Below are positions 10,625 through 64,000 of a DNA stretch of 64,000 bases, piece after piece. The position numbers and the translations under genes are program-made. The first letter of the stretch is position 1, and each line of letters opens with the position of its first letter. Location: contig JAODTK010001932.1 of NCBI GenBank assembly GCA_026419785.1, positions 115,107-179,106 on the forward strand, read 5' to 3'. The notes under the pieces were generated by a model. It saw only the letters and a program-made list of their open reading frames with translations. It was not told the origin of the DNA and ran no database searches. The stretch is from Sclerodactyla briareus (Eukaryota; Echinodermata; Holothuroidea; Dendrochirotida; Sclerodactylidae).

Positions 10625-10692
10625 GTCAGAAACGATATATTATGAAGGTCAGAAACGATATATTATGAAGGTCAGAAACGATATATTATGAA
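10625..10692 (+). repeat. 23-bp perfect tandem repeat, three copies
   Basis: 'gtcagaaacgatatattatg' plus 'aag' is repeated head to tail at 10,625, 10,648 and 10,671. The first two copies are identical and the third differs only at its end. A G-rich run (10,571-10,600) precedes it, and a diverged unit of the 2.4-kb array follows. Confidence 0.9.
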
Positions 10693-12095: not shown

Positions 12096-12119
12096 AATAG
12101 CAGACAATAAAGATTCCAC

Positions 12120-12990
12120 ATAATGGGCCCGATGGCCCACACTGGGCCGTGCGTCCCAAATCCCTGGGCACCGGGCAGAAAGTACACTTTAGACCATCAT
12201 AATTAGTGAACATCAGCCCTGAGCAACAGAATTCGTAGGAGATACAGGATCTTGCAGTATTTCATATAATGGAAAGACCCACCAAAACTGGGCCGTGAGC
12301 CCAAAATTCCCAAACAACCCCAATGGGCTTGAATCCCAGAGACTAACGTGTAACAAGAAAATCAATTGAAGCTTGTGGAGATGCATTTCAAGTACCATTG
12401 TGTGAAATACCTAGAATGGGCCCTTGGGCCCAAATGAGACTTTGGACCAAATGTTCCTGAACACTCTAAAGGTACGGCTGGTAGACCATCATTACGACTG
12501 AACTCAGCACTGTGCAACAAAATTCGTGAGAGGAGAGGCATTTTGCGTAATTCCACATGGTCTCGGTGGCACAACGGGAACCCCACTGAGCTTGGTCCTG
12601 AATTCCTGGGCACCCTGGAGGCACGGCTATTAAACCACCATTATGACCGAACATCAGCACTTTGCAACAAAATCTGTAGGGAATACAAGATTTTGCCCAA
12701 ACCAGGCCCTGGTCCTAAGAATTCTCGAACACCCCTAAATGGCCCTCTATCCAATGATCATTACTGCATTACATGTAACTTTGAGCTGAAAATCAAATGA
12801 AGCTTTTGGGAGTAGATGCATTTCAAGTACCATTGTGTGATATTTCATAAAATGAGCCTTTGGACCCAAGTGGAGACCTTGGACTAAAAATTCCTGATCC
12901 CCTGAAGGTATGGCTGTTGGATCATCATTATGACCGAACATCAGCACTGTGCAACAAAATTAGCAAAAGATACAAGATTTTAGCCTTATT
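12120..12990 (+). repeat. GGGCCC-rich minisatellite, array 1
   Basis: Units of roughly 145 bp and 290 bp share a 'agaccatcattatgaccga' box, 'catcagcactgtgcaacaaaa', 'gtaggagatacaagatttt' and a 'gggccc...gggccc' inverted pair followed by 'ttgggtcc'. The start box recurs near 12,196, 12,483, 12,630 and 12,918. Unit divergence is high. The paired GGGCCC words could form short hairpins. The same family forms the larger array at 25.0-27.0 kb. Confidence 0.85.
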
Positions 12991-14315: not shown

Positions 14316-16202
14316 ATGGCAAGCCAGATGTGCAATAATTCGATGAATCCCCCCGTTGGTTTTTCGCCGTAAACGGACAGTTTGTTGGTCGATAACTCGT
14401 TGATATCGCCTGGAATTATGCTTGTTCGACTAGTAATCAAGCTTTCTCGATGAACAAAATTTCGATTTGATATTTTTGAATTCCATTTGTCGAAAACCCC
14501 GCTTTCGTTCGATGAACTGCTTTTTCCCGCGATGAACCGAGTTTAATCGACAAGCCAACTGTGCAATTATTCGATAAACCAGTTTATCGGCGATAAAAGG
14601 GTTTTTTTCTCGAATCAATAAAACAGGGTTTATCGAAGCCACTATGTTAGCCAATGTGCAATAATTTGAAAAACTGGGTTTATCAGTCGATAAACCATTT
14701 TTTTCGGCGATTGTTGCTGTTTCTGTTAACCTTTCAAGTCATTATATCCCCACTTCGTAGTATTATGGTTGTGCCTTGTCTTAACCGTTGCGTCTCGCGG
14801 GAAGATTTCAATGTACACAAAAACTCTTAACGCTTTCTACCGAAATTTCAAACTTGAAATGAGCAGCGTCCGGTTACTAACTGGTCTTGTCAGTCTCGCG
14901 CACGGTTCGTTTTCTGGTTTCGGTTGACTTGTTTACTCTTTATCATATGCATGCGCTATGCACAACGCCTGCATGCTGCATGCTAGCTATATCCGCGCCG
15001 GCCCCGATGGGCACGTGACCCGTCGTGACTGAAAAAACTTCGAGTTTATCGAGCGAAAAGCAGAGATGCCTCGATAAACTCAGTTTATCGCAAACAGGGT
15101 TTTTCGATCATAACCAGGGTTTATCGAAGCCCTATGTTAGCCAGATGTGCAATAATTCGATGAACTCGTTTTTTTCGCCGATAAACTTGAGTTTGTGGTT
15201 GATAACTCGGTTTAGATATCGCCTGGAATTATGCTTTTCGCCTAGTAATCAGAGCTTCTCCGATGAACTTAAAAAGAAAAAAAAAAAAAAGAATTTTTCG
15301 ATTTGATTTTTTGAATGCCATTTGTCGAAAAACCCCGCTTTTCGTTCGATGAACTGCGTTTTCCGCCGATGACCGAGTTTTTTCGACAGCCCACGTGCAC
15401 TTTATTCGATAACTCGTTTTATCGGCGATAAACCAGTTTTTCGATCAAGAAAGAGGTTTATCGAAGCCTAATGTTAGCCATATGTGCAATAATTTGCTAA
15501 ACTGAGTTTTCGATCGATCAACTCGTTTTTCGCGTTGTTGCTGTTCTGTATAACCTGTCAATCATTATATCCCCACTTCGGAGATTATTATGTTTTGCCT
15601 TCGTCGTAACCGTTGCGTCGCTGGAAAATGATTTTCATGTTAGCACAAAAACTCTTTAACGCTTTATCCGAATAATTTCAAACTTGAAATGAGCACGTAC
15701 TGTACTAACTTGGTTTTCCAGTCTCGCGCACGTCGTTTCTGATTTTCGGTTTTGACTTTTACTCTTTATCATATGCATGCGCTATCCAACAGCTCATGCT
15801 GCATGTAGCTATAGCCGCGCCGCCCCGATGGGCCCTGACCCGTCGATGACGAAAAAACTCAGTTTATCGAGCGAAAAGCAGAGATTCTCGATAACTCAGT
15901 TCATCGGTCGATGAACAGGCTCTGTTTTGGTATCGGGGAAAATCCTGTTTTTCGCTCGAAAAACGAGTTTTTTTTTCGAAAAACTCGTTCATCGCGCAAT
16001 ACCCTGCTTTTCATTGCGAAAAACAAAGTTATCGATGAACAAGTTTTTAGGGGCGTAAAACTATTTTAGCGCCGAAAAACCCGTTTATTCGCCGAAAACC
16101 CTGTTTATCCCTGAAAAACTTGAGTTATCGATCGTGATAAACCCGGTTTTTTCATCGGCGAAAAACACCGTTATCGAATTATTGCACTCTGGCGTGCCAA
16201 CA
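14316..16202. mobile_element. Foldback-like element, tandem dimer of an 820-bp unit
   Basis: The left end 'tggcaagccagatgtgcaat' and the reverse complement of the right end 'tggcacgccagagtgcaata' are terminal inverted repeats. Inside, a ~320-bp unique core occurs twice (about 14,713-15,030 and 15,535-15,860) as direct copies ~820 bp apart. The cores are separated and flanked by three arrays of short degenerate GATAAAC/GTTTATC words. The 'gccagatgtgcaataattcg' block recurs about three times in each of the first two arrays. The order is array-core-array-core-array. No transposase ORF is present, so movement would need help in trans. The two cores differ mostly by one-base indels. Confidence 0.8.
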
Positions 16203-25049: not shown

Positions 25050-26975
25050 GTAGTATGGCTGTTCCATCATTATGATCAAACATCAACATTATGCACTAAA
25101 ATTGGTAGGATGAGAAGCATTCTGCGTGATTGCACAAGATGGGCCCTCGAGCCTACACTGGGCCTTGGGTCCAAATATTCCTGAAAAAAAAAATGGAGGT
25201 ACGGCTATTTGAACGTCATTGTCATATTGACTGAACATCAACACCAATCCTTGTAGAGAAGCCTTTTGCATGATTTCCAATTTGGGCCATAGGGCCCACA
25301 TTGGGCCTCGGGCCAGAAGTTCGCGAACACCACCAATGGACCACAACCCAAGTAATATTACAAGTAAAAATCAAACTTGTGGGAGGAGTTGCATATAAGT
25401 TTACCATGTTTGAAATTTCATGAAATGGACACTCTGCCCAAAGTGCATGGGATCTTGGATGAAAATTCCTCAAACCCACAAGGACATCAGTTTACAATTA
25501 TGTCCCCAGCAATGAGCATCAAAATTCATAAGTGAGAAACATTTTGTGTAATTCCACATGATGTGCCCCAGGGCCCACACTGGGCCTTGGGTCCCAAATC
25601 CTTGGGCACCCTGCAGGCATGGCTATTGGACCATCATTATGACCAAACTCAGCACTGATGGTGCAACTAGATTGGCAGGAGATACAAAATTTTGCGGTAT
25701 TTTATTTATGGGCCCTGGGCCCAGAATTCTGAACAAACCAATAGCCCTTTATCCAGAACCTCACATGTAAACTTCGAAGAAAATCAATTGAAGCCTGTGG
25801 AAGGAGATGCATTTTAAGTATCATTGTTTGAAATTTTCATAGAACAGGCCCGAATGGGACCTTGAACAAAAAATTCTGAACACCTCGAAGTTCCCGGCTG
25901 TTTAGAAGACCATCATTATGACCAAATGTCATTGTGCACCGAAATTTGTAAGAGGAGAAGCAATTTGCCTAATTCCCTTCCACATGATGGCCAGCCCCAG
26001 GGCCCACACTGGGCCTTGGGTCCTAAATACCTGGGCACGCTGAAATAGCAAAGGCAATTAGACAAACTTATGACGACCATCATCCCTGTGAAACTTTGGG
26101 GTCGAGATTTTACGGCCCAAACTTGGCCCCTGGGCCCATGGGGACCTTGGAACAAAAATTCCTGAACACCCCCAAATTATGGCTGTCAGACCATCATAAT
26201 GACTGACTGTCAGCACTGTGCACTAAAATTTGTAAGAGGAGAAGCATTTGCGAAATTCCACATGATGTGCCCCAGGGCCCACACTGGGCCTTGGGTCCTA
26301 AATACCTGGGCACGCTGAAGTACAGCAATTAGACAAACATTATGACTGAACACCTCAGCACTGTGCAACTTTGTACGAGATTTTACGGCCCAAACTTTGC
26401 CCTGGGCCCATGGGGACCTTGGAACAAAAATTCCTGAACACCCCCCAAGTATGGCCTGTAGACCATCCTTATGACTGAATGTCAGCACTGTGCACTAAAA
26501 TTTGTAAGAGGAGAAGCATTTGCGAAATTCCACATGATGTGCCCCAGGGCCCACACTGGGCCCAGGGACCTAAATCCCGGGCACCCTAAAGATACGGCTA
26601 CTAGACCACCATTACGACTAAACATCAGCACTGTGCAACAAAATTTGTAGGAGATACAAGATTTTACAATATTTCATAGATGGGCCCTAGGGCCCAAACT
26701 GAGCCCGGAGCCCAAATCCCGAACACCCCGATGGCCCTCTACCCAAGGACCACAACATGTAACTACTTTGAAGAACATCACTGAAATCTTGTGGGAGGAT
26801 ATGCATTTCAAATACTATTGTTGTGAAATTTCATAAATGGGTGGCCCTTGGGCCCAATTGTGGCCTTGGAACCCAAAATTTTCCCTGAACACCCGGTGGT
26901 GAGGTACGGCTGTTAGACTATCTTTATGACCGCAATACATCACACTGTGCACAAAAGAGGTTGTAGGAGATAGTT
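25050..26975 (+). repeat. GGGCCC-rich minisatellite, array 2 (about 1.9 kb)
   Basis: Same family as 12.1-13.0 kb. The 'gaccatcattatgaccaaa' box recurs near 25,062, 25,213, 25,630, 25,907, 26,190, 26,460, 26,605 and 26,915. Each is followed by 'cagcactgtgcacaaaattt', an aag/gag block and 'gggcccacactgggccttgg'. A recent local duplication is visible: about 25,980-26,250 and 26,250-26,540 share long near-identical blocks ('cacatgatgtgccccagggc', 'ggggaccttggaacaaaaat'). This points to expansion by unequal exchange or replication slippage. Confidence 0.88.
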
Positions 26976-27959: not shown

Positions 27960-30900
27960 TCATTGGTTCTGTAGGAAACTGTAATGGACAAAGCAGTGGA
28001 TTGTATTGAGTTGGTCAGCACACTCAGGAAACAGCAGGATAAGCTTCATGAAGGACTACCCAAGGATAGACGAGTGGTGAAATGCTCAATGCAAGGAACG
28101 GCGAGTTACGAAAAACATCAAGGAAGTAGTATAAAGAAAGGAGATCAAAGAGAGTTGTTGCAGTACAATAGGAGAATGAAAGAGAAAACTGTCAGCGAAT
28201 GCCGACACATCTGGGAGAGAAAGAATGAGGCAAAGCCAGAAAGAATAAGCGAAGCACTTAAGAGGGAAAGCAAGAAAAATAGAGTGGTTATTAATAACCT
28301 GACGAAGGATGGTGACACACAGGAAGAAAAAGAAAAGAAATGATTGGAGAAAGTTAAAGACTTGATGCAGAAGTTTACAATCCCTCCGATGTGACATGAT
28401 CCCAAGGACAATCAACTGAAAGACAAAAGGTATTTGTAAGTGTGGAGATGAAGAAGAAGAAAGAAACCAGAGCAAGGGCAAGGTAATGAAGAGGGCAAAG
28501 CGAAACTGAGAGACACTGCAACAGTCTAATAATGGTTACCCCACGTACGGCCGGACCTAATATCAACAACGACGGAGGGAAGAAACTCAGAGAAGAGATG
28601 AGAATGCGAGCATGGACAGGGGAGAAGAAAAGAAACTGATCTGAGGATCATCAAGGGAAGCTAGTAAAGGTCTATGACCCCTCGACCAACAAAAATCGAA
28701 CCTTTGGAGTGGAGGAGAATAAGGAAACAGAAACAGAAGGAAACAGTGCGAAGTAATAGTCATGTAATGAAAGACTTGAATTTGAAGTGTATGTATGTGA
28801 ATGCCAGGAGACTAGTTGCAAAATAATGGCCTATTACAGAGTTATGTCAGTGTGTTGAACACTTGGATATGGTGATTGTGACAAAACTTGGTTTTTAACA
28901 ATAATTTAGCGGAGGAGAAGTAGCGCTACAGGGGGTTTCAGTGTTTTTTGAGCAGATAGAATGAATAGAACGGGGGGTGGTGTAGCAATTTATATAATGA
29001 GACAATTCAGACGAGAGAGGATGGAGATCGCGGGGTCAGTTTAAGGAATCGCTGTGGTGCAAATTATTATGGGAAGAGGAGCAAAATATTTTTGGAGCAG
29101 TATACCGAGGTCCAAGTAGTAACCAGGATGATGAAGACAACCTGATTCACCACCATGGAAAAGGTGGGCCAGTCAGTAGCGGTTATCGGGGCAGGGGATT
29201 TTAATTACCCAGACATTAATTGGCAGAATTGGGAAGGAGACACACCAAATTTCAAGGACAGTTTTTGCAAACAGTGCAGGACCATTTTGGTTTCAGAAGA
29301 TTACAGAGCCTACAAGAGGCAAACAATTATTTTGGATTTGTTACTTACATCAGAAGAAGAGATGTGGAAAACATAGAGGTTGGTGAACTATTCGGAAGTA
29401 GTGATCATAATTGTATTCTGGCGACAACAATGATTACGAGAGGACAGGAAGAGCAGGACAAAAGTTTATGGATGGCAAAAGAGCAGACTGGCAAAGGCTG
29501 AAGGATGAGTTGCCGTGTCATCAACTGGGAGAGGAGAAAATTCGAAGGCTGTGGAGTACAAAAAATGTGGGACATCTTGCTAAACCACTACAATGACAAG
29601 TTGAGAAACAGGTTCCGTTGAGAGAGCGGCACAGCATAATAAAACCAATGGATGACGAAGGGGTTGAAAACGATTGATTCGGAAAAAAAAAAAAAAACGA
29701 AAAGCTGGAAAGAAATACAAGAATACAAAGAACCAAACAAGGAAGGGAGTACTTCATCACTGCCAAAAACCAGGTGAGATGCAAATAAAAAGAAGCCAAG
29801 AAGAATTCGAAAGGAAAACTGGCAGAAAAAATTAAGAAGACCCCAAAAATTTTACTCATATGTACGATCCAAACAAAAAGTCAGAGAAAAAGTAGGCCCA
29901 ATAAAGGATGAAAACGAAAGAAAAGTGTTAAGTGTTAAGGGCTGATATGGAAACAACAGCAGAAGCTTCAGCAAGTTCTTCCTCTTGAAGTTTTTACACG
30001 TGAAGGAGGACAACATACCGGATACAGAAATATTCTTCCACAGGAGGATGGTAAAATTAATTGAACTTAGAAATAAATGAAAAGGATGGTCTTCGACAAA
30101 TTAAAGGAAATAAGAAAGGGAAAGCTGCTGGACCAGATAACATCAAAACCAGATTATTAGGGGAAATGGCGAGGGGAAATTGCAGAACCACTGACAATGA
30201 TTTTTCGAGAAAATCCATAAGAAGTCAGAGATTCCAAAGGAATTGAAAAGAGCAAACATAACACCCCTGTTCAAGAAAGAGATCGCTTCGATGTGTTCAA
30301 AACTACCTTTCAGTGACCTACTGACATATGTACTGGGAAAAGTAATGGAAATGCTTTGAGAGATGTCATAAATGATCATCTGGAACAAAACAAACATGAT
30401 AAGGAGACACAAAACATGGATTCCGAGAGGACGTTCGTGCCTAGCAAATATGTTGGTTTACTGGGACACGTCAAACAAAGTATAAGTGCAGGAAATCTGT
30501 GGGATGTGATTATACCTGGACCTGCCAAAAAAAGCTTTTGACCACTGTACCACAAAGGAGGTAGTTGCCCAAAACTGAAACACATTGGAAAATAGATGGA
30601 CTGATATTAAAATGGATCGAGAGATGGCTGAAGGATCGGCAGCAGAGGGTTGTTCTAAGATGGAAAAGTATTGCGTGGAGGAAGGTAACAAGTTCAGTGG
30701 TACAAGGGTAAGTGTGATGGGACGGGTTGTTTCAATAGGTTCATGAACGATTTGGAATGGGGTTAAGTCAGAACTTAGTAAATTTGCAGATGATAAGAAA
30801 GTGGGCCCCTATAAGGAATATGTACGGACCGGCAACAGCTGAAGGAGGATCTGAATCAAATCATACGGTGGACAGAGATAAAGTGGCGAATGAAATTTAA

Positions 30901-31665
30901 TGTTGGAAAATGTGTCAGTGGTTGCATTTTGGATATGGGAACCCGAGTAGGATTATTACATGGAAGGGAAAGGAATTTTGAAAAACAGAAAAGAGAAGGA
31001 TTGGGGAATATATGGAATTACAACTAGGAAATTTAGAGACAGTGTGCGAATCTGCCTAGAAAAAGCGATAGAGTGATGGGAATTACAAACGGAATTTCAC
31101 CACTTTGACTCTAAGGTATTGCGTGAATCTGTAACAAATCCCTTGTGAGCCACATCTGTGAATATTGTTGTTGTACCAGCTGAGACCATACTTGAAGAAA
31201 GACATTGAGTTATTAGAAGGAGTGCAAAGGGAGAAAATGACAAAAATTCCATGAGGGCAGAGCAATAAGTCGACGAAGAGGGGAATGAAAGATTTGAGGT
31301 TGATGACAATAGATGTACAACGCCCACTTACGCCAAGATCTGCGTACATTTACAATAATAACACAAGGAAGGAATAAGCATCAATGTGGAAGACTTTGCT
31401 GAAATCATTAGGAGAGACAGAGGAGTCGGACTAGAGGACATCACTGAAAATAAGACCATCAACAGTGCATTGGAAGTAAGACGGCAACTCGTATTTCTGT
31501 AGGATATGGCAGCTTGGAATACTGCAGGAAGCAGTCACAGGCCAAACCCCTAAAATTTTCAAGGAACAGAAAAGCGGAGTGCGGGATTCTTTGAGGTCAT
31601 TAGACCTCTTATCCCTAAGAGCCATGCTTCAGAAGAATATCTGAAGCCAGACGAGAGGGTGGGCC
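27960..31665 (+). mobile_element. CR1-type LINE, near full length but broken
   Basis: An ORF1-like charged protein lies at 27,984-28,343. The endonuclease region follows: 'FGAVYRGPSSNQDDEDNL' near 29,090, the catalytic 'GDFNYPDINW' near 29,195 and 'GSSDHN' near 29,395. The reverse transcriptase region comes next: 'NKKGKAAGPDNI' near 30,110, 'DVINDHLEQNK' near 30,362, 'RWLKDRQQRVV' near 30,620, the catalytic 'SELSKFADDKKVG' near 30,770 and 'MKFNVGKC' near 30,892. The C-terminal 'RPYLKKDIELLEGVQREK' lies near 31,185. Motif order and wording are those of CR1 elements. A working element copies its RNA at a nicked target. Here successive motifs lie in different frames (at least ten shifts) with in-frame stops, so no intact protein is encoded. 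Some shifts may be assembly errors. Confidence 0.9.
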
Positions 31666-33779: not shown

Positions 33780-34039
33780 TGAGTATGTACCGGCCCCGCG
33801 CTGTGCAGTATAGAATGGGGCCAGGGGGGTAAGCCTAGCTGGAGAGGTAACCAATTTTGAGCCATACAGCATGGAAAAACGCTTGGCCCTTGCAGGGAAA
33901 TGGTCGTCTGGCAGGCACCTTCTGGTGGGTGTGTGGTGAGGGCCTAAAAAAGGCCCAAAAGTAGCTAGCTTGCTTCCCGAGTAACCGCGGTAATCTCTCA
34001 AAATGTCTCCAGCATTATCTCATGTAAACCTTGATGACG

Positions 34040-34567
34040 TGACCAGACATTCTAGTTGGTGGGGGTTGGCCTACCCAGACGGCCAATACTGGGGCCCAAA
34101 AATGAGCTCCCCCCTTTTAGCTCATGATGTACCAAGTAAAACAAAGTAAAAATGTTTCGTTACACTCCAGCTATCACAAAGTGACCCTGACAGAACACTT
34201 TAATTGGTGGGTTGGGGGCGCCAGGACGCCATACAATACCCCCACCCCTACGCTAACCTAGGTTAGTCGCAGGTAACCATTTGAAACAAAGTGGAGATGT
34301 TCGGTACACTCCCAGCTATCACAAAATGACCAATGACAGACATTAAGTGGTGGGTGGGTTGCGCCAGACGCCATACAAAAACCCCCACCCCAGCTAACCT
34401 AGGTTAGCTCGTAAGGTTAACCAGCTGAAACAAAGTTGAATGTTCGGACCTCCAGCTATCCACAAGTGACCGAACAGACCATTTTAGGGGTGGGTAGGAT
34501 GGCAGACGCCATAAACTATTCTCCACCTAGAGCTAACCGCGAGGTTAGCTCGTAAGGTACCAATGAA
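34040..34567 (+). repeat. ~125-bp tandem subrepeats, left arm
   Basis: About four units, each with 'actccagctatcacaaagtg', 'accaatgacagacatt', 'gtggtgggtgggtt', 'cgccagacgccatacaa', 'cccccacccc' and 'ctaacctaggttagctcg'. The unit edges carry the short palindrome 'ctaacctaggttag'. Confidence 0.85.
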
Positions 34568-35060
34568 ATCTCGTATTGTTCAATAGAGTTTTATTTGATG
34601 CCACTAGCTTAAATCCCACGCATGTAAGAAACCCATCAAACAGGACAGAAAGAAAATTTTATGGGTGTAAACGGCATTAAATCCGTAGATAATACTAAAC
34701 AACAAATTTAAGTGTTGGGATTGGACAAAATACAGGTCATCTCATGATCAAACCAGTTTTGCCACTGACAAACGCAAAAGGCAGGTGAAAAGTGTCACAA
34801 ATCTTATAAGAGATTTCCAAATAAGGCAGCTGTGGACAGATAATAAGAATAGTTGGCGCCATATAATAAGGACTGACAGCAGCCATGAAGACGTACCAGT
34901 TGAAAAGGGTATAAAGTGTTACTTGTGTAATAGTAATCGTGACTAATCACATTCAGATCGTTCAGTGGGGGCCAGATGTGCCCAAACCACACAACCCATA
35001 CATATTTTACGACGTGAAAGCAAAATTCCATGATCACAAAGTGGGAATCTTGTAGGTAAG
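34568..35060. other. Left-arm-only segment without inverted partner
   Basis: About 500 bp between matched parts of the left arm has only ~35 bp opposite it in the right arm (about 39,870-39,905). It is an insertion on the left or a deletion on the right. No gene is seen. Confidence 0.55.
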
Positions 35061-35334
35061 GGGGTTGACGGTCACAATCTAGTGTTGCGCTTTGACGGCG
35101 AACAGGACGTGATTGTTAGGGAGGCTACCAGAGATCCTGGATCCGACTCAACGGATTGGGCATGGATCTTGGGCAAAAACCACTTTAATATTCCGTTGCT
35201 TAGTTGCCGGGAGTGACGTTTGAGTGCAATGGGTGGGTCGTCACAACCAATGACAAATGTCGGAGTCAGATAAGATAAATGGACTTTAGAAGTACTAAAC
35301 ACGTGTTGTGTTCATGAGGCCATGCGCATGTCAA

Positions 35335-36000
35335 TTAGCCATGACCGTCTGCTGGTATTGTCAATCATGCTAAAAAATTATGCATGCGATTTGAAACATA
35401 TTAATCATTTTGTGAGCTTTTTATTTTTTTATTAAGTAAGTCAAGTTGAGCAGGAATGTTTAAAAGTTCGTGAGTGATCGTTAGTTGGCGAAAAATGTTT
35501 ATAAATGCCGACCGAACAATTTGACCACTTCGGAAACCACATTCTAGGTTGAACTTTTAAAACGAGGGTAGTAGATAGAACCGACTTGGGTGAGTTCAAG
35601 AAAACGACCAAGCGCCTTGTCAATAGCAATAGTCCGTCCGGGATATTGTTAATCATGCTAAAGTAATATATAGCTGATTGAAACAAATTGCTCACTTGTA
35701 AAACTTTTTTAGCACGGACTTATCACGTGAGTAGTTGAGAGGAAGGAGTGGGTTAAGGTTAGGATGGTAGCGTAATCGGACAAATATATGTGTATATTTG
35801 CGGACTGAACATTTGACCACTTGGATTCCATAATTCAGGCTAAAAATTTAAACGCCTGAAAAGATTGGTAGGTTCAGAGATGGTACAGTCCTGTCAATTA
35901 GGACAGTCCCTTCAGTGTGAAATTGCTTAATCGGGCAGGTTAAATACCCATCGATTTGACACGTTGTTCACTTGCGTAGCCTTTGTGTGGCTGGGTACTG
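35335..36000 (+). repeat. ~295-bp tandem repeat in the inner left arm
   Basis: Blocks 'atatgtcaatcatgct'-like (35,360 and 35,648), 'gattgaaacaaattgctcac', 'tgaacatttgaccacttgg' and 'aggttgaac' recur about 295 bp apart. A third, partial unit follows from about 35,905. The right arm has one unit only. Confidence 0.7.
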
Positions 36001-36239
36001 GCATGAGGAGGTAGACGCGCTAGATAATTTAAAAACGCCGGTGACGCTTCCATGACGTTGCGGGAAATAAACCGCCCAATGCGAGTCGGTATCCGATACG
36101 GTATATCGTCACAATGATATCAATGCAACCACAATATTGATTACGCGAGCGGTATCTCCAGCAAGCAACGAGGGCGTACGTTGTCCCACTGCCCCTCCCT
36201 AGAAGAATAAGCATGCGGGCGCAGTATGTGACCGTTTTT

Positions 36240-39000
36240 TAAGAGCCTTTGCTGGCTTGGACTCATCCAAAGAAAAGAAAGTCACAGGCGTTTACAACGC
36301 TCGTACCAGAAAATCCGGAGCCACGCCGGACGGACTAACACCATGCAGGAGAAGAGTATTCTTCTTAAAAAAGGGATGAGAAACTCGACCATCAGAACTC
36401 GGAAGGATACACCGCTAACTACCTTAGGGTAAACAAGGGTTATCCAGCACTCCCAGGTGCACGAGATGTAATGACGAGGGACAGACGAGGGGACTGACGA
36501 GAGTCTTGGGATCTCGTCACTCCGTCGGGCAAGAACGTCGCCTGTCCAGATCCGTGGCGCGAAGGCTCTCCCGTCAGCGAAGCAGGGACAAAGCCGCTTC
36601 AGGAAAAAATACAGGGCTCAACAGGATATTGAATCATCGAAGGACAACGTCGATCCAGCGTCTGCTACAGAAGCTTTGCGACCTCCAAAGAGAAGACCCG
36701 AACGAGGGAAAGCGGAACCTCACAGAAGAAGAAGTCGAGCAGAGCAGGAAGAAGGAGCCTTACAAATTCAAACGCAAATAGGCGCCAGACCCTTTTCTGT
36801 GATCAAGGCTCTGTGTAGGGCCCATACACAGCACCAGAAAGGTGTTGCATTCAGCCAATCTCTGTCAAACAAAGCATGTGTCCGTGTCCATTTCTTTTAC
36901 TGTCATTGAGTAAAGATACACGATCCCGTCTACAGAAAAACGGAACATTGAACAGAGCGGGTTTAAAGTTATTAGTAAATATGACGTATAAGCGTTATCA
37001 ACCTCTCAGGGAGAGCGGGCTACACGTAGCCACAGCCTAACCTGCCAAAATGAGGCAAATAAAATCAAAGAGTACGTCAGAAACCTATCAGAACGCCCTC
37101 CATACAATATAGAGGTTATCGCCCTAGGTGGGGTTGTTAAAGTTCATCACTGACACCAGATAAACCGAAGCGTACCGGTACGCATGTCCTCCTCTCCATT
37201 AGGAACTACACAAGAACAATGCGCCGTCGTTCAGTCATGCGACATCATAAAAAAAGCAGGAGCAAAAGATTCCGCATGCAAGCCACATGAGTCCCTCAAG
37301 TGACTTTAAACCAGAACTTGGAAGATACCTGGAGGCGCAAAGGGTGAGATGGCTAGAGAACGCATCGCTCTAAATACACATTAGGACGATTACTCCATTG
37401 TGGTGAAGCCTTCGACAGAGGAAGAGGAATAGCCATACTCAATCGATCAGCATTATCAAAACGAGATCGAACGTCAGCTGAAAGGCGTCATTACGAACGG
37501 TTACCAAGCGACACTACCCAAAGCCACAACCGACTTGGTTGTTCAAAACCGCCGTCAAAAAATGTTTCGCCAAAAAGAAAGACGAAGAGACATTCAACTA
37601 CCAAATCCACACAACCATGAGACCCGCACACCTGTATACGTCTTGCCTAAGGTGCACAAAGCACCTCGCAAACTCAAACATTTTGCATGGCAGGAACCTA
37701 TCAAGGCAGTAAGGGTCCCCCCAACAGAGCCAATCTTAGGCTTTGTGGATTATTTCCTCCTTCAAAAGTAGGTAAGGCAAGAAACGTATGTAGAAAGACA
37801 CAAATCACATCCGTACACTACTGCAGGGGTTGAAATCCAGTTAATTTATCGCTTCTCTGGATGTCATATCAATGTACAACAACACGCCACATGATGAAGC
37901 TCGCGACACATGCCAGGTTGAATACGATAACGCAATGAGGACCATTACGATTACCGAAAAATAGGCCACATCACTGCGCAAAACTCCATTTTATTTGATA
38001 CTGTACGCAACTGCTTGTGGAATCAAACGGCAATTTTATAGACAAAAAAATGGTTTGCGCAATGGGCAGTCAGCGTCCCATGAGATCTGCGACATTGTTG
38101 TGCACAAACTAGAGACCTCAAGCCTTCAATAGAACCAAACATCCTACACTGTCTAAGGACAGAGATGACATATGCGTTTGTACAGGGAACTGAAGATGAA
38201 CTGAACCAATGGTGGAACGATGAAAACGTACTGAACCCACTCCTTAAGTTCACAGCAGAAATTTTGATACTGAAGGTCACATACCTCGATTAACAATTTT
38301 CAAGGGAGACAATTCCCGTCAAAACGGCTTTCCAGGTACAAGAATCTAACCAAGCCACACGGAAACTTAACAATATTTAGATCGCCGTTCAGCTCATCCC
38401 AAGCCACTTTCAATGGCGTCTCAAAGGGGAGTCCTAATGTATGCACGCCTATGAACAATGAGTCAGACAGCGCTGATCATCCGAGAAAAAAACAATTTCA
38501 CAGAAAAACTTTTTGTCCGTAACTACACGAAAAGAGAGGTGGTATCAGTCCCAATGTATCAAGAATGAGGACCGCGACAAATATGCGACGCCGGGCACGC
38601 AAACAAAACGGCACTGCACACAAATCAGAACCACCACTGGGGTTCAAACTAACATGTCACCCCAGCAAAACCAGGGACCTAAAAGAGTCCTTAACTAAGC
38701 ATTGGCATTTGATAAACGGTCACCCAGAACTTTCGCAATGTTTCCCCAAAGCCCCATAATTGCCTACAAACGGGCACAAAATCTCAGAGGATTCATAGTT
38801 GTAAAGCAAATTTCCACACGGGCAGCCCCAAACGAACAACACAGGAAAGCGAAAACGATACTCTTCTCGGAGTGATCGCAGCATATAAACCAAAAATACT
38901 CCAAAGTGTAGCATAAACCAGATACACCGACCGCATACGATACCACTGATGAGCCCCAAAAATAATAGCGGGCAGGAACAAGTCTCAAGCCAACAAAGGC
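36240..39000 (+). mobile_element. Penelope-like retroelement fossil (RT region)
   Basis: Short stretches match the RT of Penelope-like elements in the expected order: 'VLPKVHKAP' near 37,640, 'SLDVISMYNN' near 37,850, 'ICDIVVHKLE' near 38,080, 'GTEDELNQW' near 38,188 and 'YKRAQNLRG' near 38,765. An upstream charged segment (36,506-36,781) may be its N-terminal part. No GIY-YIG endonuclease could be recognised. The copy is broken, with roughly ten or more breaks, and looks old or poorly sequenced. It lies between the inverted arms described above, whose terminal repeats may belong to it. Confidence 0.7.
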
Positions 39001-39904
39001 TCATCACGTCACATTTACTCCTAACATGCCTAACTTCCAAAAGAGAGGGGGAGTGGATCCACGGCCGATGTGGGGCCGGGCGGAATGGGAAATGTCGTCT
39101 CGGATTATTTTGCACTAGGGTTACATCGATGTCGTTTGATATCATTGGTGACGATATATGTGTCGATACCGTGTCGCGTTCAAGACGATAGTTCGTCGGG
39201 GCGTCTAAAGCGTCGCACGTCTCATCGCTTTCATACCTCTCATTACCCATCCCGAGGCAAAAAGGAAAAACAAGCGTGAACGTTGTTCAAAATAGGGGGT
39301 TCGATACCGCCGTAAACACTTTCACTGGAGGGACTGTCAAGGGCAAACGATTTGAGCAACCTGATTACCACAGTCGTTTTAACCAAACCCCAAAGCGCAC
39401 AGAATGGTTCCAAAGGGTTCAATCGGCGTCAATGTATAAAAATTGATATTTGCCCGCAGAAGAATGATACAAACTCTGTGAAGCGTTTTTTTGCCATCAA
39501 CTGTCCAATCAGCTACAGTTACCGATGCAACTACAGTGATCAAAATGTGTAAGTCGCTATTTTTTTTTGCCTGATAACATTTATCACGAGGGACCGCCGT
39601 GGATAACAGGCGCATGGACATACTGATGCAAAACCTACTATGTGTTAGACTTACTCGAAGACAAATGTCAGACTTGGTTAAGCCATTTTAGTTCAAGACG
39701 TTTGACAAACACCACGCGATCAACTCCAAAGGGCAATCCCACGCCACCAAGCCGCAGAATATTAAAGTGGTTGTTGCCCAAGATCCAGGTCAACATCCCC
39801 TGAGGCGGTTCCCGGATCTCAGGTGGTAGCCTCACCAACGATCAAGTCATGTCGCCGGCAGAGCGCGGACATAGATGGATTGTTTGGACGGTTCAAACCC
39901 CCCC

Positions 39905-40262
39905 CCCCCCCCCTTATTACTATCACTGTTTCAATTAGTTACCTACGAGCTACCCCTAGGATAGTGTAGGGTGGCGATATTTTTATGGGTCTGGCGAACC
40001 CAACCACCACTTAAAATGTCTGTCATTGGTCATTTGTGGTAGATGGAGTGTCACGAACATTTTCTACTTCGTCCCAACTGGTTACCTCACGAGCGAACAT
40101 AGGTTAGCTGAAAGGGTGGGGATATTGTATGGCGTCTGGAGCACCCAACCCACCACATTAAAATGTCTGTCATTGGTTCATGTAGATGATAGCTGGAAGT
40201 GGCACAAACATTTTCCACTGTTCCAACTAGTTACATCATGAGCTAAGCTAGCTCAATTTTTT
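39905..40262 (-). repeat. ~125-bp tandem subrepeats, right arm (inverted)
   Basis: Reverse-complement copies of the left-arm units: 'aaaatgtctgtcattggt', 'agctggaagtg' and 'tggttacctcacgagc'. Two full units plus part of a third are present. A poly-C run (about 39,898-39,914) marks the inner edge. Confidence 0.85.
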
Positions 40263-40620
40263 GGGCGCCAGTTATTGGCGTCTGGCCCCTTTTTTGCTTC
40301 GCCCCCCCCTCGCCGGGCGCGTCCCCCTCACACACACACAGAATTCTGTCACAGGTCTCATGTTCAGGGGATAATGCTGAACATTTTGCCGTAGATTTGC
40401 CGCGGTTACCTCGGGAGCTAAACTGACCTAAATTTTGGGCCTTTTTTTATGGCCCTCACCACCACCCCACCAAAAAAAAAAAAAAAAAAGAGGTGCGTGC
40501 CAGACGACGATTTCCCGCAGGGCCATAGCGTTTGTAACTGCTGTATGGCTCACAATCGTTACCTCTCCAGCTAGGCTTACCCCCCTGGGCTCCGCTCTAG
40601 TAATTGTACCCGAATGACTT

Positions 40621-41282: not shown

Positions 41283-42620
41283 TGGCCTCCCCCTCCCCTT
41301 TGGCAATTTTTGCATTTTCAGATGACCTTAGATCATTGGTGCATTATAAGCACTCCAAACCACTTGCTTCCTTCCCATACCTATTTTTGCAATTTCACAT
41401 GTTCTTAGATGCGATTCGCTGCGCTATGAATCTTGTGATTTTTCTGCCAAATTGAGGGCAGTTGATTTCCTTCTTTCGGATGTTGGTCTAAATCTCACCT
41501 TCCGGGGACCGCCGGAGTTTCCCCTATCCCACTTTGTGAAATTTTTGCAGTTCAGGCGCCGAGATGCAATTGGTGCAATATCGGACTCCGAAACAACACT
41601 TCCTCCATAAATAATGGTGCATTTTCGCATGCCTTTATATGCAATTGCTGCTTCAATCTTGTGATGTGTCTGCCAAATCACCGACTTGGGGTTTCCTTCT
41701 TGGGAGTTAGATCTAATTCTCACCTTTCAGGGGCCCACCACAGTCCCCCTTCTCCCATTTGAGAAAATTTTTGCATTCTCATGGCCTTAGATGCAATTTG
41801 GTGCCAGATAGGACCCCGAACCTCGCTTCCTCAAATTAATTTTGATTTTCGAATGTTTTTTAGAACGATTTGCTGCTCTGATCTTCGATTTTTCTGCCAA
41901 ATCGAGAGCAGTGAGTTCCCTTCTTTGGAGTGGTCTAAACCCTCCCCTTCAGGGACCACCGAAGTCCCAACCCCCCCCCCCCCCCACTCTGGGAAATATT
42001 TTTGCATTTCGGGTGGCCTCAGATGCAATTGTTCAAATAGCACTCCAAAACTCAACTTCGTTCGAGGAATGATTGTGCATTTTCCCATGTCCTTAGATGG
42101 AATTTGGGTGCTCTGAATCTTTTAGTTTCTTCTGCCAATCGAGGGGGTAAGGGACCTTCCTTTGGAAGTTGGTCTGAATCTCAACCTTTAGGGACCGCCA
42201 ATCCGCCTTTCCTCACTTAAAGAATTTTTCACATATCAGTGGCCTTAGATGAATTTGGTGCATAATGTCACTCCAAAACACAAACTTCGTTCCAGAAATA
42301 CTTTTGGCATTTTCACATGTCCGTCACTCAAGCGATTGCCAATTTGCTACTCTGGATCTGGTGATCTTTTTCTGCCAAACTGACCTGATCACCGGCCAGT
42401 AAGTTCCATTTTCGGGAGTTGCCTAAAAGTCTGCTATGTTTGGGGACGCAATCCCACCTTTCCCCACTTTGGAAAATGTCTGCATTTTCCGGTGGCCTTA
42501 GATTCGATTTGCTGCCTTGAATCTTGTGTTTTTTCTCTGGCCCAATGTGCTGAGCACTAAGTGCAGTAAGTTCCTTTCTTTGGAAGCTGGTCGAAACCAC
42601 ACTTTTCAGGGACCATGCAT
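41283..42620 (+). repeat. ~240-bp tandem array, about 5.5 copies
   Basis: Every unit runs 'tttttgcattttcaggtggc', 'cttagatgcaatttggtgca', 'gcactccaaaac', 'tttgcattttcacatgtcc', 'gctgctctgaatcttgtg', 'tttttctgccaaatcgag', 'cagtaagttccttctttgg', 'gttggtctaaatctcac' and 'tttcagggaccgcc'. Units start near 41,290, 41,540, 41,775, 41,995, 42,235 and 42,490 (partial). Divergence between neighbours is similar across the array. No ORF spans units. Confidence 0.9.
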
Positions 42621-48839: not shown

Positions 48840-49773
48840 CCGATGTTCATAAGGCCTGTTATTCATAAGGCCTTTGGATTCATAAGCCGCCCGGTATTAA
48901 TAAACGTGGAAGTTTTCGGAGAAAGGGTTGTATCATAACGACAAAAGCGTCCGATAATTCATAATAAAAAAGGGTCTTTGTTCATAAAGTCTGAGATTCA
49001 TAATGACCAAAAAGGCCGTTTTTCATAATTATCAAAAGGGTCCGTTATTCATAACAGAGAAAAAAGGTCCGATTATAATAGTAAAAAAGGTCGATATTCA
49101 GAATGGCGGGAAAGGGTCCGGTACTTCATAAAAAGCGAAAGGGGAACGTTATTCATAATAGCAAAAGAGGTCCGTAATTAATAATCGACAAAAAAGGTCG
49201 TATTCATTAATGTGTTCTTTTCATGATATACGTGCCAAAGGTAGATGATTTACCTATGCGAGGCTCGGCAAGGATGCAAACCCTAAAAACTGCACCTTTT
49301 TGTCAGCTGCGAACTGGGCAGATCCACGACAGGTGGTTGTTTTCCTATTATGAATTAAGGACCGTTTTTTCCTATTAGGATATCGGACCATTTTCCTATT
49401 ATGAATAACGGAACCTTTTCCCTATTATGAATACCGGACCATTTTTCATATTATGAATATAGGACCTCTTTTCCATTATGAAGGATCGGACCTTTTCTCT
49501 CATTATGATAAAGGGACCCTTTGATCTATTATGAATAAGGACCTTTGTTCCTATTATGAATACCGCACCTTTTTCACTATAAATAAAGGACCGTTTTTAC
49601 TATTATAAATATCGGACTTCTGTTGTGATTATGAATACGGACATTCTGAATAAAGAACCTTTTCTGGTCATTATGAATAACAGGGGCCTTAGAAACAGAA
49701 GGCTTATGAATATTTAAGAAAAGGTAATGACAAACGGAGCCTTATGAATATAAAAGCCGTAATGAACATCGGG
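48840..49773. mobile_element. Foldback-like element, arms of ~27-bp tandem units
   Basis: The left arm (48,840-49,211) holds about 15 degenerate units of 'ttattcataatagcaaaaaa' plus 'ggtccg'. The right arm (49,338-49,773) holds about 16 units of the reverse complement 'cggacctttttcctattatg' plus 'aataa'. A spacer of about 126 bp with no such units separates them. The outer ends match as inverted repeats: 'ccgatgttcat' at 48,840 and 'atgaacatcggg' ending at 49,773. The whole 0.93 kb is one long imperfect palindrome built of subrepeats, the layout of Foldback elements. No ORF is present. A target duplication could not be identified. Confidence 0.85.
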
Positions 49774-59429: not shown

Positions 59430-60230
59430 ATTACCGTTTGGACGGTGCGTATCACAGTTTCCCAGTGCGATCGAGTTCCGCTCGATTTGCGAGCGAGCGC
59501 CATTTTCTCGCACTCGTGTGTTTGCATTGGCCCTCCGTGTCTGCGGTCGAAGCCTTTTGCTCCCTGCTGGGCTCCCCCCAGGTACTTGCCTCACTTTGGG
59601 CATGGCTCCTTCTGTCCCCCATCCTTTTGCGGTCAGTTTGAGCCCACTCTCACATTGCGGCCTTGCGCCTTTCAGTAGGAAGTTGTCTTTTTGAGGTCTT
59701 TGCTCGGGGTGTCACTCTCGATCTCCCATGGGTTATCGTATTAGCTTCTCACACGAATACGGGAGTGCGCTCCGCTTGCCTGCTATGGTGCGGGTATGGA
59801 GGCCGGAGCACGTACAAAGCCCTCATGGGCTTGTCTCGCTCGGCGAGCGGATGGCCGGAGCCATGAGACCTCATTTTCTTATTGTGTCGTCATGCATATA
59901 TACTGTCTGCCTGAATTCATGTATGTACTACGGATGTGTGGGGGGCCAATCCCGACATGGGTTATCTATGCATGTTTTTGCACGGCTCTATCTAACCCCC
60001 CCGGGCAAAAAAAATTCAAATTTTTTGTAGTTTTTTGTTGCAGATAGATAAGAGGTGGGGCTATCCTGTGGACCCCCCTTACGAGGAACCGTGCCCCCAT
60101 CCAGTTAGTAGCAGGGGGGGGCTCGCCGAAGATCGAGACCCTGATGTGCTCCCATTTCCGAGCAGGGGAAAGGCAGTCTGTCATGGCTAGCCAATGACCA
60201 AGCGTTTCTAAGAACCGCAGGGACCCGCAT
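59430..60230 (+). other. GC-rich stretch before the DIRS fossil
   Basis: Composition rises in GC from about 59,430. It may be the leader or terminal repeat of the DIRS-like element, but no terminal motif could be confirmed. Confidence 0.3.
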
Positions 60231-63200
60231 ATGGGAACCCCCATCGCTGCCTTACGGTTACGACAGCAAGGATGCCACCACCGTACGACACCAACACCCC
60301 GGTGTTGGGCGACGGCAACCCCACGCTCCACAATTGGCTAGGCAGCTGGTCCCTAACTCAGGGAAGCCGCCTCACGGGAGCACAGCCCATTCAGGGAAGG
60401 CTCCGGGTACCTCACGGTCCCAATCCCAAAGAGAGTTGCCCTCTCCCCTTTCCAGCCATTACAGTCGGGTATCAACCCGTTACACCTACAACTTGGAATT
60501 CTCCCCATATCTATGCCCCACACACGGGAGCATTTTCGGTTGCGAATCCGAGGGTCACCCTAGTACAAGCCCCAAACATCGACCGGGATGTGACCCATTC
60601 GGTCGAGAAGGGCCAGAGAGAGCTACGAAGGCCGGAGCCGCCCCGCAGAGAAGAGTCCCGCGCAGATCCCGAGCATAGGTCGAGATGGAGAGCTAGCATC
60701 GTCCAGACACTCGCACTCACGGTTGACCTCATGTTCCAGGGAAAGGTCCCGAAAGCACGATCGAGAGTCGGACGACGATCAACCAGTCCTCCCGACGGTC
60801 CCCGCTCACCGAGCCGAGCCTGTTCCGTACCGAGAGCTCAACCTCTCCACGCCGGGATAGGAGTCGCCCCACATGCGGCCAGCGGAAGTTCATCCGAAGA
60901 GCGGCAGGACTAAGGTACTGGAGGATCGTTTGACGCTTTGTTCCCAAAAGCTTCTCATCTTGGGCGAGACATGGGTCAAAGCACAGCGTCGCGTGTGCCC
61001 GCACACGCCCATGTACGGAGACTGACACTCCGGTACGGCCACACGGAGGCAGAGGAGCTTGAAAGGATATGCCTCGAGAGCTAGAAGCGGTAGACGACAA
61101 TTCGGCTGAGGCCAATGAATCTGGCTCTATATTCTCATCAGGAGCATGAGGAGACTCCGGGCGCCACGACGGTGAGCCGCTCTTCAAGCGCTCAAACGGA
61201 GGACCCCACCGCGGGCACACCGCGAGCCAAGCTCCGGACCCCGCGAAAGGATGAACTCTCTTCGTCGGCTATTGATAACATTCCTACAGATGATAACGTT
61301 GAACAGAATCGCCGCTTCCTCGCAAACTCATTACAAGCTGCCGTTACCGCACCTTCCGTCTTGAAGCCGCCTCCGCTCCGGCTCCATGGCACAGTATCAT
61401 GGGTTCGACGCCGAGCAGTACCAGGCCAATACCCGCCCTCAACTGCTCTTCGACGGGAGGATTGCAAAATGCTTTAGAGGGTGTATGGGGCCCAGGCAGG
61501 GGCGCCTCCTTTACACTCGCAATTGATAGGGCTCTACACTTCCCCGAATCCCAATTAGGCCGATCTTACTTTGCCGCCTGTTCCCCCAGCAGGCGGGGGC
61601 GCCTTTTGATAGGCAAAGGTGCGAGTTGCAACGACACGAGTGGAAACAGGGTGCCGTTATGGAGGGTGGATAAACAAGACACCGCCGTGAAAGGGGAACT
61701 GGAAACCTATGTAGTGCGATAGGGCGGCCTGTTTCGGGGCTCAAAGCAGCGGCCCCTTGAAGTTCATGGTAACTGAGGCTCGGTCCTCCCACCCGACCGC
61801 GGGGGACCCAGAGATGACAACTCTGATGTGGAATTTTCTCTACGGTGTTGTCCCGTTTTCAGGTGGAGCAATAGTTCGCGCGGGGTGGAACATAAAGGCT
61901 ACCCGACTCAGTCGGGCCAGGATTAGTCTGCTAGGGTTGCCGATATAGCAGCTAGGTAACTACAAGACTCCCCCTTCAGGGGCCGGACCCTTTCGGGGGG
62001 GATTTACCCGCCGTGGTCGCTGCCGAAAAAGTCTGTAGACAAGAGACGTTTCAAAAAACGAAAATGACGTTTACGTCGCAGGCGCCCCTTCGGGGTAGGA
62101 CAGCCGGCAGGGAGGGCGGCAGGTCACGTGGAAGATCCGGCAGAGGGGGCCAACAGTCGTCGCGGCGACGCAAACCAGGCAAAAGGGCGGCAAAAGAGCC
62201 CGGGAATCCCCTTCCCAATCGCCAGGGCCCCTTCCCGCTCCTTTGGCGGCGCTTGCAAGAGGCAGATCTTCGCAAGGGAGAGGGGGAAAGCGGGGAGGCG
62301 GTCAACAAATGACTATCACAGCTGCCGCAGTCTCCAGAATCCGGACAAACCCCAGTGGGCGGGGAGACTGCGGTTCCACGCGGAGGCGTGGACCACTTTA
62401 ACGGAGAGGATTCGGCTGGGTTCGGTTCAACGGTTGCGGAAGGGATATCGCCTGGAGTTCACCTCGACCCGAGTGGGGGAACGACGGTACGTTCAGTTAA
62501 AAGCCCTCACGTTCGGCCTTCCTACGGCCACGAGAACATTACAAGCATCACCTGAGTGATGGCGTGCTATCTCCGCAGGGCGGCGGTACAGATTTTCATG
62601 TAAATGGAAGACTGGCTGATCTTGGACCCCATCTCAGAAACAGTCTCTGACGGACACCAACGGGTACTCGCCTTCCTCAGTACTGGGGGTTGTTAATAAA
62701 TTCCCACTGAAGTCCCTCCCCTGACTCGTGTCAAAGTGAACGCTTTCTCTGGGGCCGAGATAGATCTGATCATGGGATGGCAACCCCAACCGAGGGCAGA
62801 GCCAGGCAGTTTGATCAGGGATCCGACTCCCTTCAGGAGGCCTCCCTCTCAATCTAAACCGTCCCGAAGCATGGCTTTGGTCTGCCTTGGCTCACCTGTC
62901 GAGTTAATTGGACCTAGTCCCTGGTGTTGATGAACATGCGTCCACTGCATCTTTCCCTGCTCGCTCAATTCTTCCGCCCAACGGTTTTCACCCTCTGTCT
63001 TACAGGGTCCCGCGGGCCCCGTACCTCAGAGACATCTTTCCGTGGTGGTCAGATCCCGCAAATCTGGTAAGAGTCATGCGTTCCCTACCTCCTCCCCGTA
63101 CGTTATGTGACGACCGATGCGTCACTTTCGGTATGGGGGAGCCACTCTGGCCAAACCGTTGGCGCAACCGGGGGAACCCCCCTTGCGTCGGTGGCACTTC

Positions 63201-64000
63201 AACGTCCTGCGTTTCTCGTGCCCTTCGGGATTCGAGCGTCCTGTATTCGAGGCAAAACCGTTGGTTTGATCCGAACGGACAAAACCACGGTAGTGTCCGC
63301 ATCTCAACCGACCCGGCGGGACACTCCTCGTTTCGCCTGTGGGCGAAATAACGTTGGACTGTTTCACCAATGGTGTCGCGCCGCGACCTGTTTGGTTCAG
63401 GTGGCGACACCCTTCCAGGGGTGGAGACTGCAGGGCGATTGCCTATCCAGAGTTGTTCCTGGCCACTCCGAGTGGTCCACTTCCCACGTCAGTGACAGCG
63501 GCGGCCATCTTCAATCAAATAGGTGGTTCCCGGAGCTAACCTTTCGCGTCGCCACCCTCAACGCACAAACTGCCTCGTTTTTTGCGCAAGGGTGCCTGTC
63601 CCAGCTCGAGTTGGGTCGAAACCGCCTTCGCAAAGGACTGGTCGTACCTCATCGGCTATGTTTTCCCCCCCTTTTTGCGTGATCGTCAGAGTCTTGAGAA
63701 TGCCTCGCGACAGGCTTGCCCGTCCTTCTACTATCGCTCTGCTCCCGTTTTGGCCGTCCAGCGTGGGTTTCTCCCACTCCTCTCGAGTTGGCGGACTCCC
63801 CGGGTGGATTCTCGGTTGGTCGCGGACTCTCACCCATCCTCCTGGCACAAATCCGCATGCCCATCCGGAAGTACTAACTCCCGTTTGACTGTTTTGGAGT
63901 CTCTCCACCACAGCGTTCCGAAAGGAGGGCTTTTCGAGAAGATCTGCCCGCTGGCTGCCAAAAGGCAGGGAGCTTCCCACTCCCAACTAGAGCGTATATT
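60231..64000 (+). mobile_element. DIRS-like retrotransposon fossil, cut by the window end
   Basis: A Gag-like first region with long overlapping open frames (about 60,272-61,480) is followed by an RT region (about 62,290-62,930, with 'KALTFGLP'), an RNase H region (about 63,000-63,400, with 'TDASLSVWG') and a conserved segment after it (to about 63,900). Order and wording match DIRS1-type tyrosine-recombinase retrotransposons. The recombinase would lie beyond the window. The copy is broken, with roughly ten breaks. Its left boundary is uncertain and could be as early as 59,430. GC content is much higher than in its surroundings, so it is probably a fairly young insertion seen through a noisy assembly. 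Confidence 0.85.

What the first reader, a model, noticed from the sequence alone, without database searches (positions are those of the whole stretch)
33780..40620. Giant inverted-repeat element with a reverse-transcriptase core
Two arms, ~2.45 and ~1.6 kb, match in inverted orientation in four successive blocks: the outer end, a 125-bp tandem array, an inner unique block and a 295-bp unit. They enclose a Penelope-like RT region. Penelope-like elements can carry inverted terminal repeats, but arms this long with two classes of tandem subrepeats look like a Foldback transposon. The locus may be a new Penelope-like subfamily with composite terminal repeats, or a foldback element that carries one.
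Basis: partly seen in the sequence, partly recalled or inferred. Interest (0 to 1): 0.85.

Follow-up and report, generated by a model that had tools for sequence, protein, structure and literature searches.

The report
Foldback-like repeat element around Penelope-like fragment
A 6.8-kb stretch of what looks like an animal genome has two long, internally repetitive inverted arms enclosing pieces that resemble a Penelope-like reverse-transcriptase gene; the layout resembles known foldback transposons, and whether arms and core ever moved together could not be tested because the genome search did not complete.

Summary
The inverted repeat is real: a left arm of about 2.3 kb (33811-36123) matches a right arm of about 1.46 kb (39136-40599) in three stretches, an outer part of ~140-bp units, a 150-bp block and ~288-bp units. 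Between them lies a 3.0-kb core with seven collinear + strand matches (E below 1e-3, 37165-38800) to Penelope-like RT segments that I recalled from memory; no database supports this, and no GIY-YIG endonuclease was found. A ~19-bp motif near the termini recurs at unit ends: 9 of 9 window sites at 4 edits or fewer lie in the outer arms, in arm orientation, as in Galileo/Tetris foldback elements. I favour a foldback-type DNA element with a PLE fragment in its middle; PLE terminal repeats, or two unrelated inverted copies, remain possible. No target duplication exceeds chance. Repeat pairs here show transversion excess and many 1-bp indels, as in unpolished long-read sequence, so the broken frames do not prove decay. 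The genome search did not answer in 16 tries; mobility of the composite is untested.

The parts
33811..36123 (.). left arm (inverted repeat, 2313 bp; outermost 10 bp by eye)
   Evidence: aligned in inverted orientation with 39136-40599 in three stretches
33811..34134 (+). left terminal domain: outermost 43 bp plus two differentiated units A (33854-33991) and B (33992-34134)
   Evidence: alignment; LA-RA 0.73 (z 18-20); LB-RB 0.61 (z 9-11), hardly above LB-RC 0.60 (z 6-8)
34135..34562 (+). left ~140-bp tandem array, units C (34135-34279), D (34280-34423), E (34424-34562)
   Evidence: TRF period 143; unit identities 0.73-0.81
34563..35076 (.). left-only segment, no counterpart found in the right arm
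   Evidence: score 15 vs shuffle max 21 against 39250-39930; no BLAST match in the window
35077..35225 (.). 150-bp block shared with the right arm
   Evidence: 121 matches, 26 substitutions
35320..36123 (.). left inner domain: ~288-bp units at 35320, 35608 and (weak) 35892
   Evidence: scores 76 (shuffle max 25) and 21 (max 18)
36124..39135 (+). core between the inner ends of the arms (3012 bp); + strand A-rich from about 36200 to 39050
   Evidence: inner ends by alignment; AT skew
37165..38800 (+). Penelope-like RT pieces in all three + frames (37165-37323, 37616-37795, 37845-37928, 38192-38290, 38236-38448, 38586-38756, 38681-38800)
   Evidence: tblastn with recalled segments, each E below 1e-3; best match on the reversed window 0.082 and 0.018
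39136..40599 (.). right arm (inverted repeat, 1464 bp; outermost 11 bp by eye)
39136..39617 (.). right inner domain, matches left 35608-36123
   Evidence: score 67 vs shuffle max 24
39723..39876 (.). right copy of the 150-bp block
39936..40227 (-). right array units D (39936-40078) and C (40079-40227)
40228..40599 (-). right terminal domain with units B (40228-40402) and A (40403-40555)
33835..33853 (+). terminal copy of the recurrent ~19-bp motif; other sites end at 34134, 34279, 34423, 34562 (+) and lie at 39936, 40079, 40228, 40404 (-); a weaker one at 40556 (5 edits)
   Evidence: 9 of 9 sites at 4 edits or fewer in the window; 0-3 per shuffle in 8 dinucleotide-block shuffles; weaker site

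Best explanation
A copy of a foldback-type DNA transposon. Its long terminal inverted repeats are built of a terminal domain, a tandem array and an inner domain; the repeated motif at the unit ends would serve as multiple binding sites for a transposase supplied in trans (inferred by analogy with Galileo; no transposase was seen here). Its middle is occupied by a Penelope-like retroelement fragment, either inserted into or captured by the loop, and not needed for the arms' movement. Shown: the inverted arms, their domain order, the recurrent motif, the position of the core. Inferred: cut-and-paste movement, transposase binding, passenger status of the PLE fragment.
For: Arms well above shuffles. 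Motif near both termini recurs at unit ends: 9 of 9 window sites at 4 edits or fewer lie in the outer arms in arm orientation, shuffles give 0-3; four of these (33853, 34134, 40228, 40404, each at exactly 4 edits) lie outside the homogenised units C-E from which the motif was written. Terminal, array and inner domains match the FD/OD/ID layout of Tetris, whose repeats share 37 bp with its flanking domain (PMC4079207, passages), and Galileo repeats hold transposase-binding sites (PMC3688188, passages). The two sides of the core show no direct repeat such as pLTRs (score 13 vs shuffle max 24) and no endonuclease was detected, as for a passenger fragment. Arm similarity falls inward: 523 of 591, 121 of 147, 341 of 442 aligned letters identical, which does not look like repeats made together in one copying event.
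Against: No second copy of arms or core in the window and none obtainable from the genome. No TSD above chance: best score 4, reached by 903 of 2000 random placements. No transposase seen, but only 20 of the 44 + strand pieces of 28 aa or more and one - strand piece were put to Pfam. The A-rich stretch ends within roughly 100-200 bp of each arm, leaving almost no loop, which suits an integral unit as well; part of the left arm (34600-34900) is A-rich too. The motif was chosen after seeing the arms.
Confidence: 0.5

Rival explanations
1. A Penelope-like retroelement whose own terminal repeats are long, composite and inverted (inverted pLTRs with tandem arrays); arms and core are one retrotransposing unit.
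For: PLEs bounded by inverted pLTRs with TSDs are documented (PMC3846280, section 6 read). The A-rich, coding-like composition fills the core almost to both arms. Inner arm ends are sharp and similar.
Against: The pLTRs described in that section are about 180-220 bp, and the typical layout also has direct pLTRs beside the ORF; no direct repeat was found. No hammerhead: Rfam gave nothing, a core pattern gave nothing, and the single CTGATGAG in the core is within chance (4 in the window, shuffle mean 1.78, 9 of 100 shuffles reach 4). Similarity between arms is uneven.
Confidence: 0.2
2. Two separate copies of one repeat family that happen to lie in opposite orientation on either side of a PLE remnant; no composite element.
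For: Arms differ in length and content (left-only 34563-35076, extra 288-bp unit). No TSD above chance outside. Array units C-E do not pair by position between the arms.
Against: Both copies end next to the core at corresponding inner ends, and the outer ends correspond too; two independent insertions need not do so. Unit A, and weakly unit B, pair by position, though that would also hold for two copies of one family.
Confidence: 0.2
3. Sequencing or assembly artefact creating or distorting the inverted repeat.
For: Repeat pairs in much of the window show low transition/transversion ratios and many 1-bp indels, e.g. 14322-15090 vs 15139-15906: 47 substitutions (14 transitions), 67 indel events, 51 of them 1 bp.
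Against: A foldback read would mirror the core and keep one symmetry axis; neither holds. The domain structure is biologically coherent.
Confidence: 0.1

Closest known systems
Tetris (foldback element, Drosophila virilis)
   Same: Long TIRs with flanking domain, tandem-repeat domain and inner domain; repeats share sequence with the flanking domain; variable middle (PMC4079207, passages)
   Different: ~140-bp units here versus ~220 bp; a second ~288-bp repeat class; middle holds PLE-like pieces, whereas the Tetris middle has no apparent coding capacity; TSDs of 8-10 bp reported for Tetris, none shown here. No sequence comparison with Tetris was made
Galileo (P superfamily, Drosophila)
   Same: TIRs over 1 kb with direct repeats, some of which carry transposase-binding sites (PMC3688188, passages)
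   Different: No transposase or THAP domain seen; no sequence comparison with Galileo was made
Penelope-like elements
   Same: Core pieces resemble recalled PLE RT segments in order; PLEs can be bounded by inverted pLTRs (PMC3846280, section 6)
   Different: No GIY-YIG endonuclease, direct pLTR or hammerhead found; arms far longer than the pLTRs of about 180-220 bp in the section read
Terminons (rotifer telomeric PLE-based giants)
   Same: PLE RT within a larger composite element (PMC6431247, passages)
   Different: The passages describe telomere attachment, hammerhead ends and accessory ORFs; no hammerhead was found here, and telomeric repeats and accessory ORFs were not specifically looked for

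Membership tests
Foldback-type DNA transposon | long terminal inverted repeats | tested here: met
Foldback-type DNA transposon | tandem subrepeats inside the TIRs | tested here: met
Foldback-type DNA transposon | target-site duplication | tested here: inconclusive
   best score 4, reached by 903 of 2000 random placements
Foldback-type DNA transposon | several genomic copies with the same ends | not testable with these tools
   The genome search did not answer in 16 tries
Penelope-like element | PLE-type reverse transcriptase | tested here: inconclusive
   seven matches with E below 1e-3 to recalled segments; no database match; the recalled segment for motif B gave no match in the core
Penelope-like element | GIY-YIG endonuclease (canonical PLEs; some PLEs lack it, PMC6431247 passages) | tested here: inconclusive
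   no match better than 0.34 in the window with two recalled segments that have no database check; the reversed control reached 0.018
Penelope-like element | direct pLTRs / partial tandem copies | tested here: not met
   35900-36900 vs 38870-39720 direct, score 13, shuffle max 24; no other core copy in the window
Penelope-like element | hammerhead ribozyme motif in terminal repeats | tested here: not met
   no Rfam or pattern match; single CTGATGAG in the core within chance

The most novel reading that the evidence does not exclude
A Penelope-like retroelement without an endonuclease that is framed by long foldback-type inverted repeats as one mobile unit, so that a DNA transposase moves, or its cleavage primes, a reverse transcriptase lacking its own nuclease.
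Probability: 0.1. Interest if true: 0.75.

Novelty: new member of a known kind. Interest (0 to 1): 0.35.

Why it matters
If other copies keep the same arm-core junctions, this would join two classes of mobile DNA, a retroelement core and foldback-type ends, and would let one ask whether a PLE can do without its endonuclease. If arms and core occur apart, it is a nested insertion of ordinary interest. The apparent sequence noise is a caution: the broken reading frames cannot be taken as proof that the element is dead.

Tried and rejected
Hammerhead ribozyme at 38946: only the 8-letter core matches, no Rfam hit, within chance. Database support for the RT: Pfam on 20 of 44 listed + strand core pieces gave no match at its curated cut-off; PDB on two pieces gave nothing and one unrelated match at E 0.49; viral and genome collections gave no confirmed relative (with window pieces; with a recalled segment). 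A pattern for a PLE peptide found four IMG/VR contigs (L001-L004); all four show stops around the pattern and no PLE-like continuation by eye, so I took them as chance. The 22-base arm end had no exact match in viral contigs or genome contigs. Rejected: palindromic-read artefact (axis shifts, unmirrored core). A first motif count with a best-match option found 4 sites, no more than shuffles (0-4 in 10); that option dropped sites, and I replaced it by an edit-distance scan; both are given.

Literature searched. No title or abstract start that I was shown reports a PLE with long foldback-type ends, but one search listed 12 of 49 papers, only open-licence papers are held, and I read passages or sections of five papers at most; this is no proof of absence. 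Two further papers looked up by DOI were not held.

Full report
Setting. The window is about 39-47% G+C with a 58% G+C end, has no Rfam gathering match, and carries LINE-like and DIRS-like segments by recalled queries. I take it for an animal genome, an inference from the kinds of repeats; the organism was not identified.

Arms. Inverted homology is well above shuffles in three stretches. Significant alignment runs to 33821 and 40588; I placed the ends at 33811 and 40599 by eye, and beyond 33821/40588 the flanks score at chance (13, shuffle maximum 20). Inside, the arms end at 36123 and 39136; the innermost letters agree closely and the similarity then stops. Sums of paired coordinates shift from about 74360-74410 to 74950 to 75225-75260, because the left arm has an extra ~510 bp (34563-35076) and an extra ~288-bp unit. 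A read that folded back on itself would keep one axis and mirror the core.

Units. The outer ~750 bp looks like one array of unequal age. Units C-E (left) and C-D (right) are 0.71-0.81 identical to one another and do not pair by position. Unit A matches its counterpart in the other arm (0.73); unit B does so only weakly (0.61, against 0.60 to right unit C). Otherwise A and B are 0.49-0.60 to the rest, near the level of unrelated alignment but with z up to 8. A ~19-bp motif near the terminus recurs at unit ends: 9 of 9 sites at 4 edits or fewer in the whole window lie in the outer arms, left ones on +, right ones on -. Eight dinucleotide-block shuffles gave 0-3 such sites and none at 3 edits or fewer, against 5 in the window. 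The motif was written from the array units, so only the sites at 33853, 34134, 40228 and 40404, each at 4 edits, are independent of that choice. An earlier count with another program option gave 4 sites against 0-4 in ten shuffles.

Core. Between the arms lies a 3012-bp core whose + strand is A-rich from about 36200 to 39050 (AT skew 0.08-0.49 in 200-bp windows); 34600-34900 in the left arm is A-rich too. Recalled PLE segments match the core in order in three frames: six matches below 1e-3 among the 17 rows listed for the window (37616-38800) and one (37165-37323); several of these alignments contain stop codons. An upstream segment reached 0.04, no better than the control, and is not counted. 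The best matches on the reversed window were 0.082 (9 rows) and 0.018. The segment around motif B found nothing in the core, and I recognised no YxDD-like box by eye. Two endonuclease segments found nothing better than 0.34 in the window. Pfam gave no match at its cut-off for 20 of the 44 listed pieces, but also none at E 0.01 for four of my recalled segments, so its silence says little. The RT assignment therefore rests on recall, made after reading the window.

Sequence quality. In the tandem pair 14322-15090/15139-15906 there are 47 substitutions (14 transitions) and 67 indel events, 51 of 1 bp; the outer arms show 68 substitutions (23 transitions) and 60 indel events, 48 of 1 bp. In a 380-bp LINE-like stretch the RT matches lie in three frames. 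Natural divergence rarely gives such an excess of transversions and 1-bp indels (general knowledge); unpolished long-read sequence does. It is not uniform: a pair near 26 kb has 43 substitutions (17 transitions) and only 21 indel events; some pairs at 12.4-13 kb and near 25.5 kb have transition/transversion ratios of 1.5-5.5, while others in the same clusters fall to 0.18-0.75; short arrays at 10625 and 11356 are nearly perfect. So the divergence between arms may be partly technical, and broken frames do not prove decay.

Termini. No duplication stands out: best score 4, equalled or exceeded by 903 of 2000 random placements.

Interpretation. Layout and motif agree with foldback-type TIRs (Tetris, passages of PMC4079207; Galileo, passages of PMC3688188). 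A PLE bounded by inverted pLTRs is a documented arrangement (section 6 of PMC3846280), but the pLTRs there are about 180-220 bp and the typical form has direct copies, which I did not find. Similarity between arms falls inward (523 of 591, 121 of 147, 341 of 442), which fits separate histories of array and inner domain better than arms made in one copying event. The nearness of the coding-like stretch to both arms speaks for an integral unit and keeps that rival alive.

Limits. Mobility, copy number and junction sharing are untested.

Noticed in passing
14322-15906: Tandem pair of ~769-bp units whose copies differ by more indel events (67) than substitutions (47), like raw long-read noise.
   Followed up: partly
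28001-31500: Purine-rich + strand (0.61-0.70 per 500 bp) with a LINE-type RT at 30532-30913 in three frames (recalled query).
   Followed up: partly
60000-64000: G+C rises to 0.578; a DIRS-like RNase H segment at 63107-63298 (E 1e-4, recalled query).
   Followed up: partly
41295-42536: Array of ~226-bp repeats about 700 bp right of the element, with no BLAST match to the arms.
   Followed up: no
12113-12982 and 25052-26956: Two related repeat clusters (TRF periods 272 and 143 in the second); some pairs here have more natural transition/transversion ratios.
   Followed up: no
48933-49678: Two arrays of ~26-bp units that match each other in inverted orientation.
   Followed up: no
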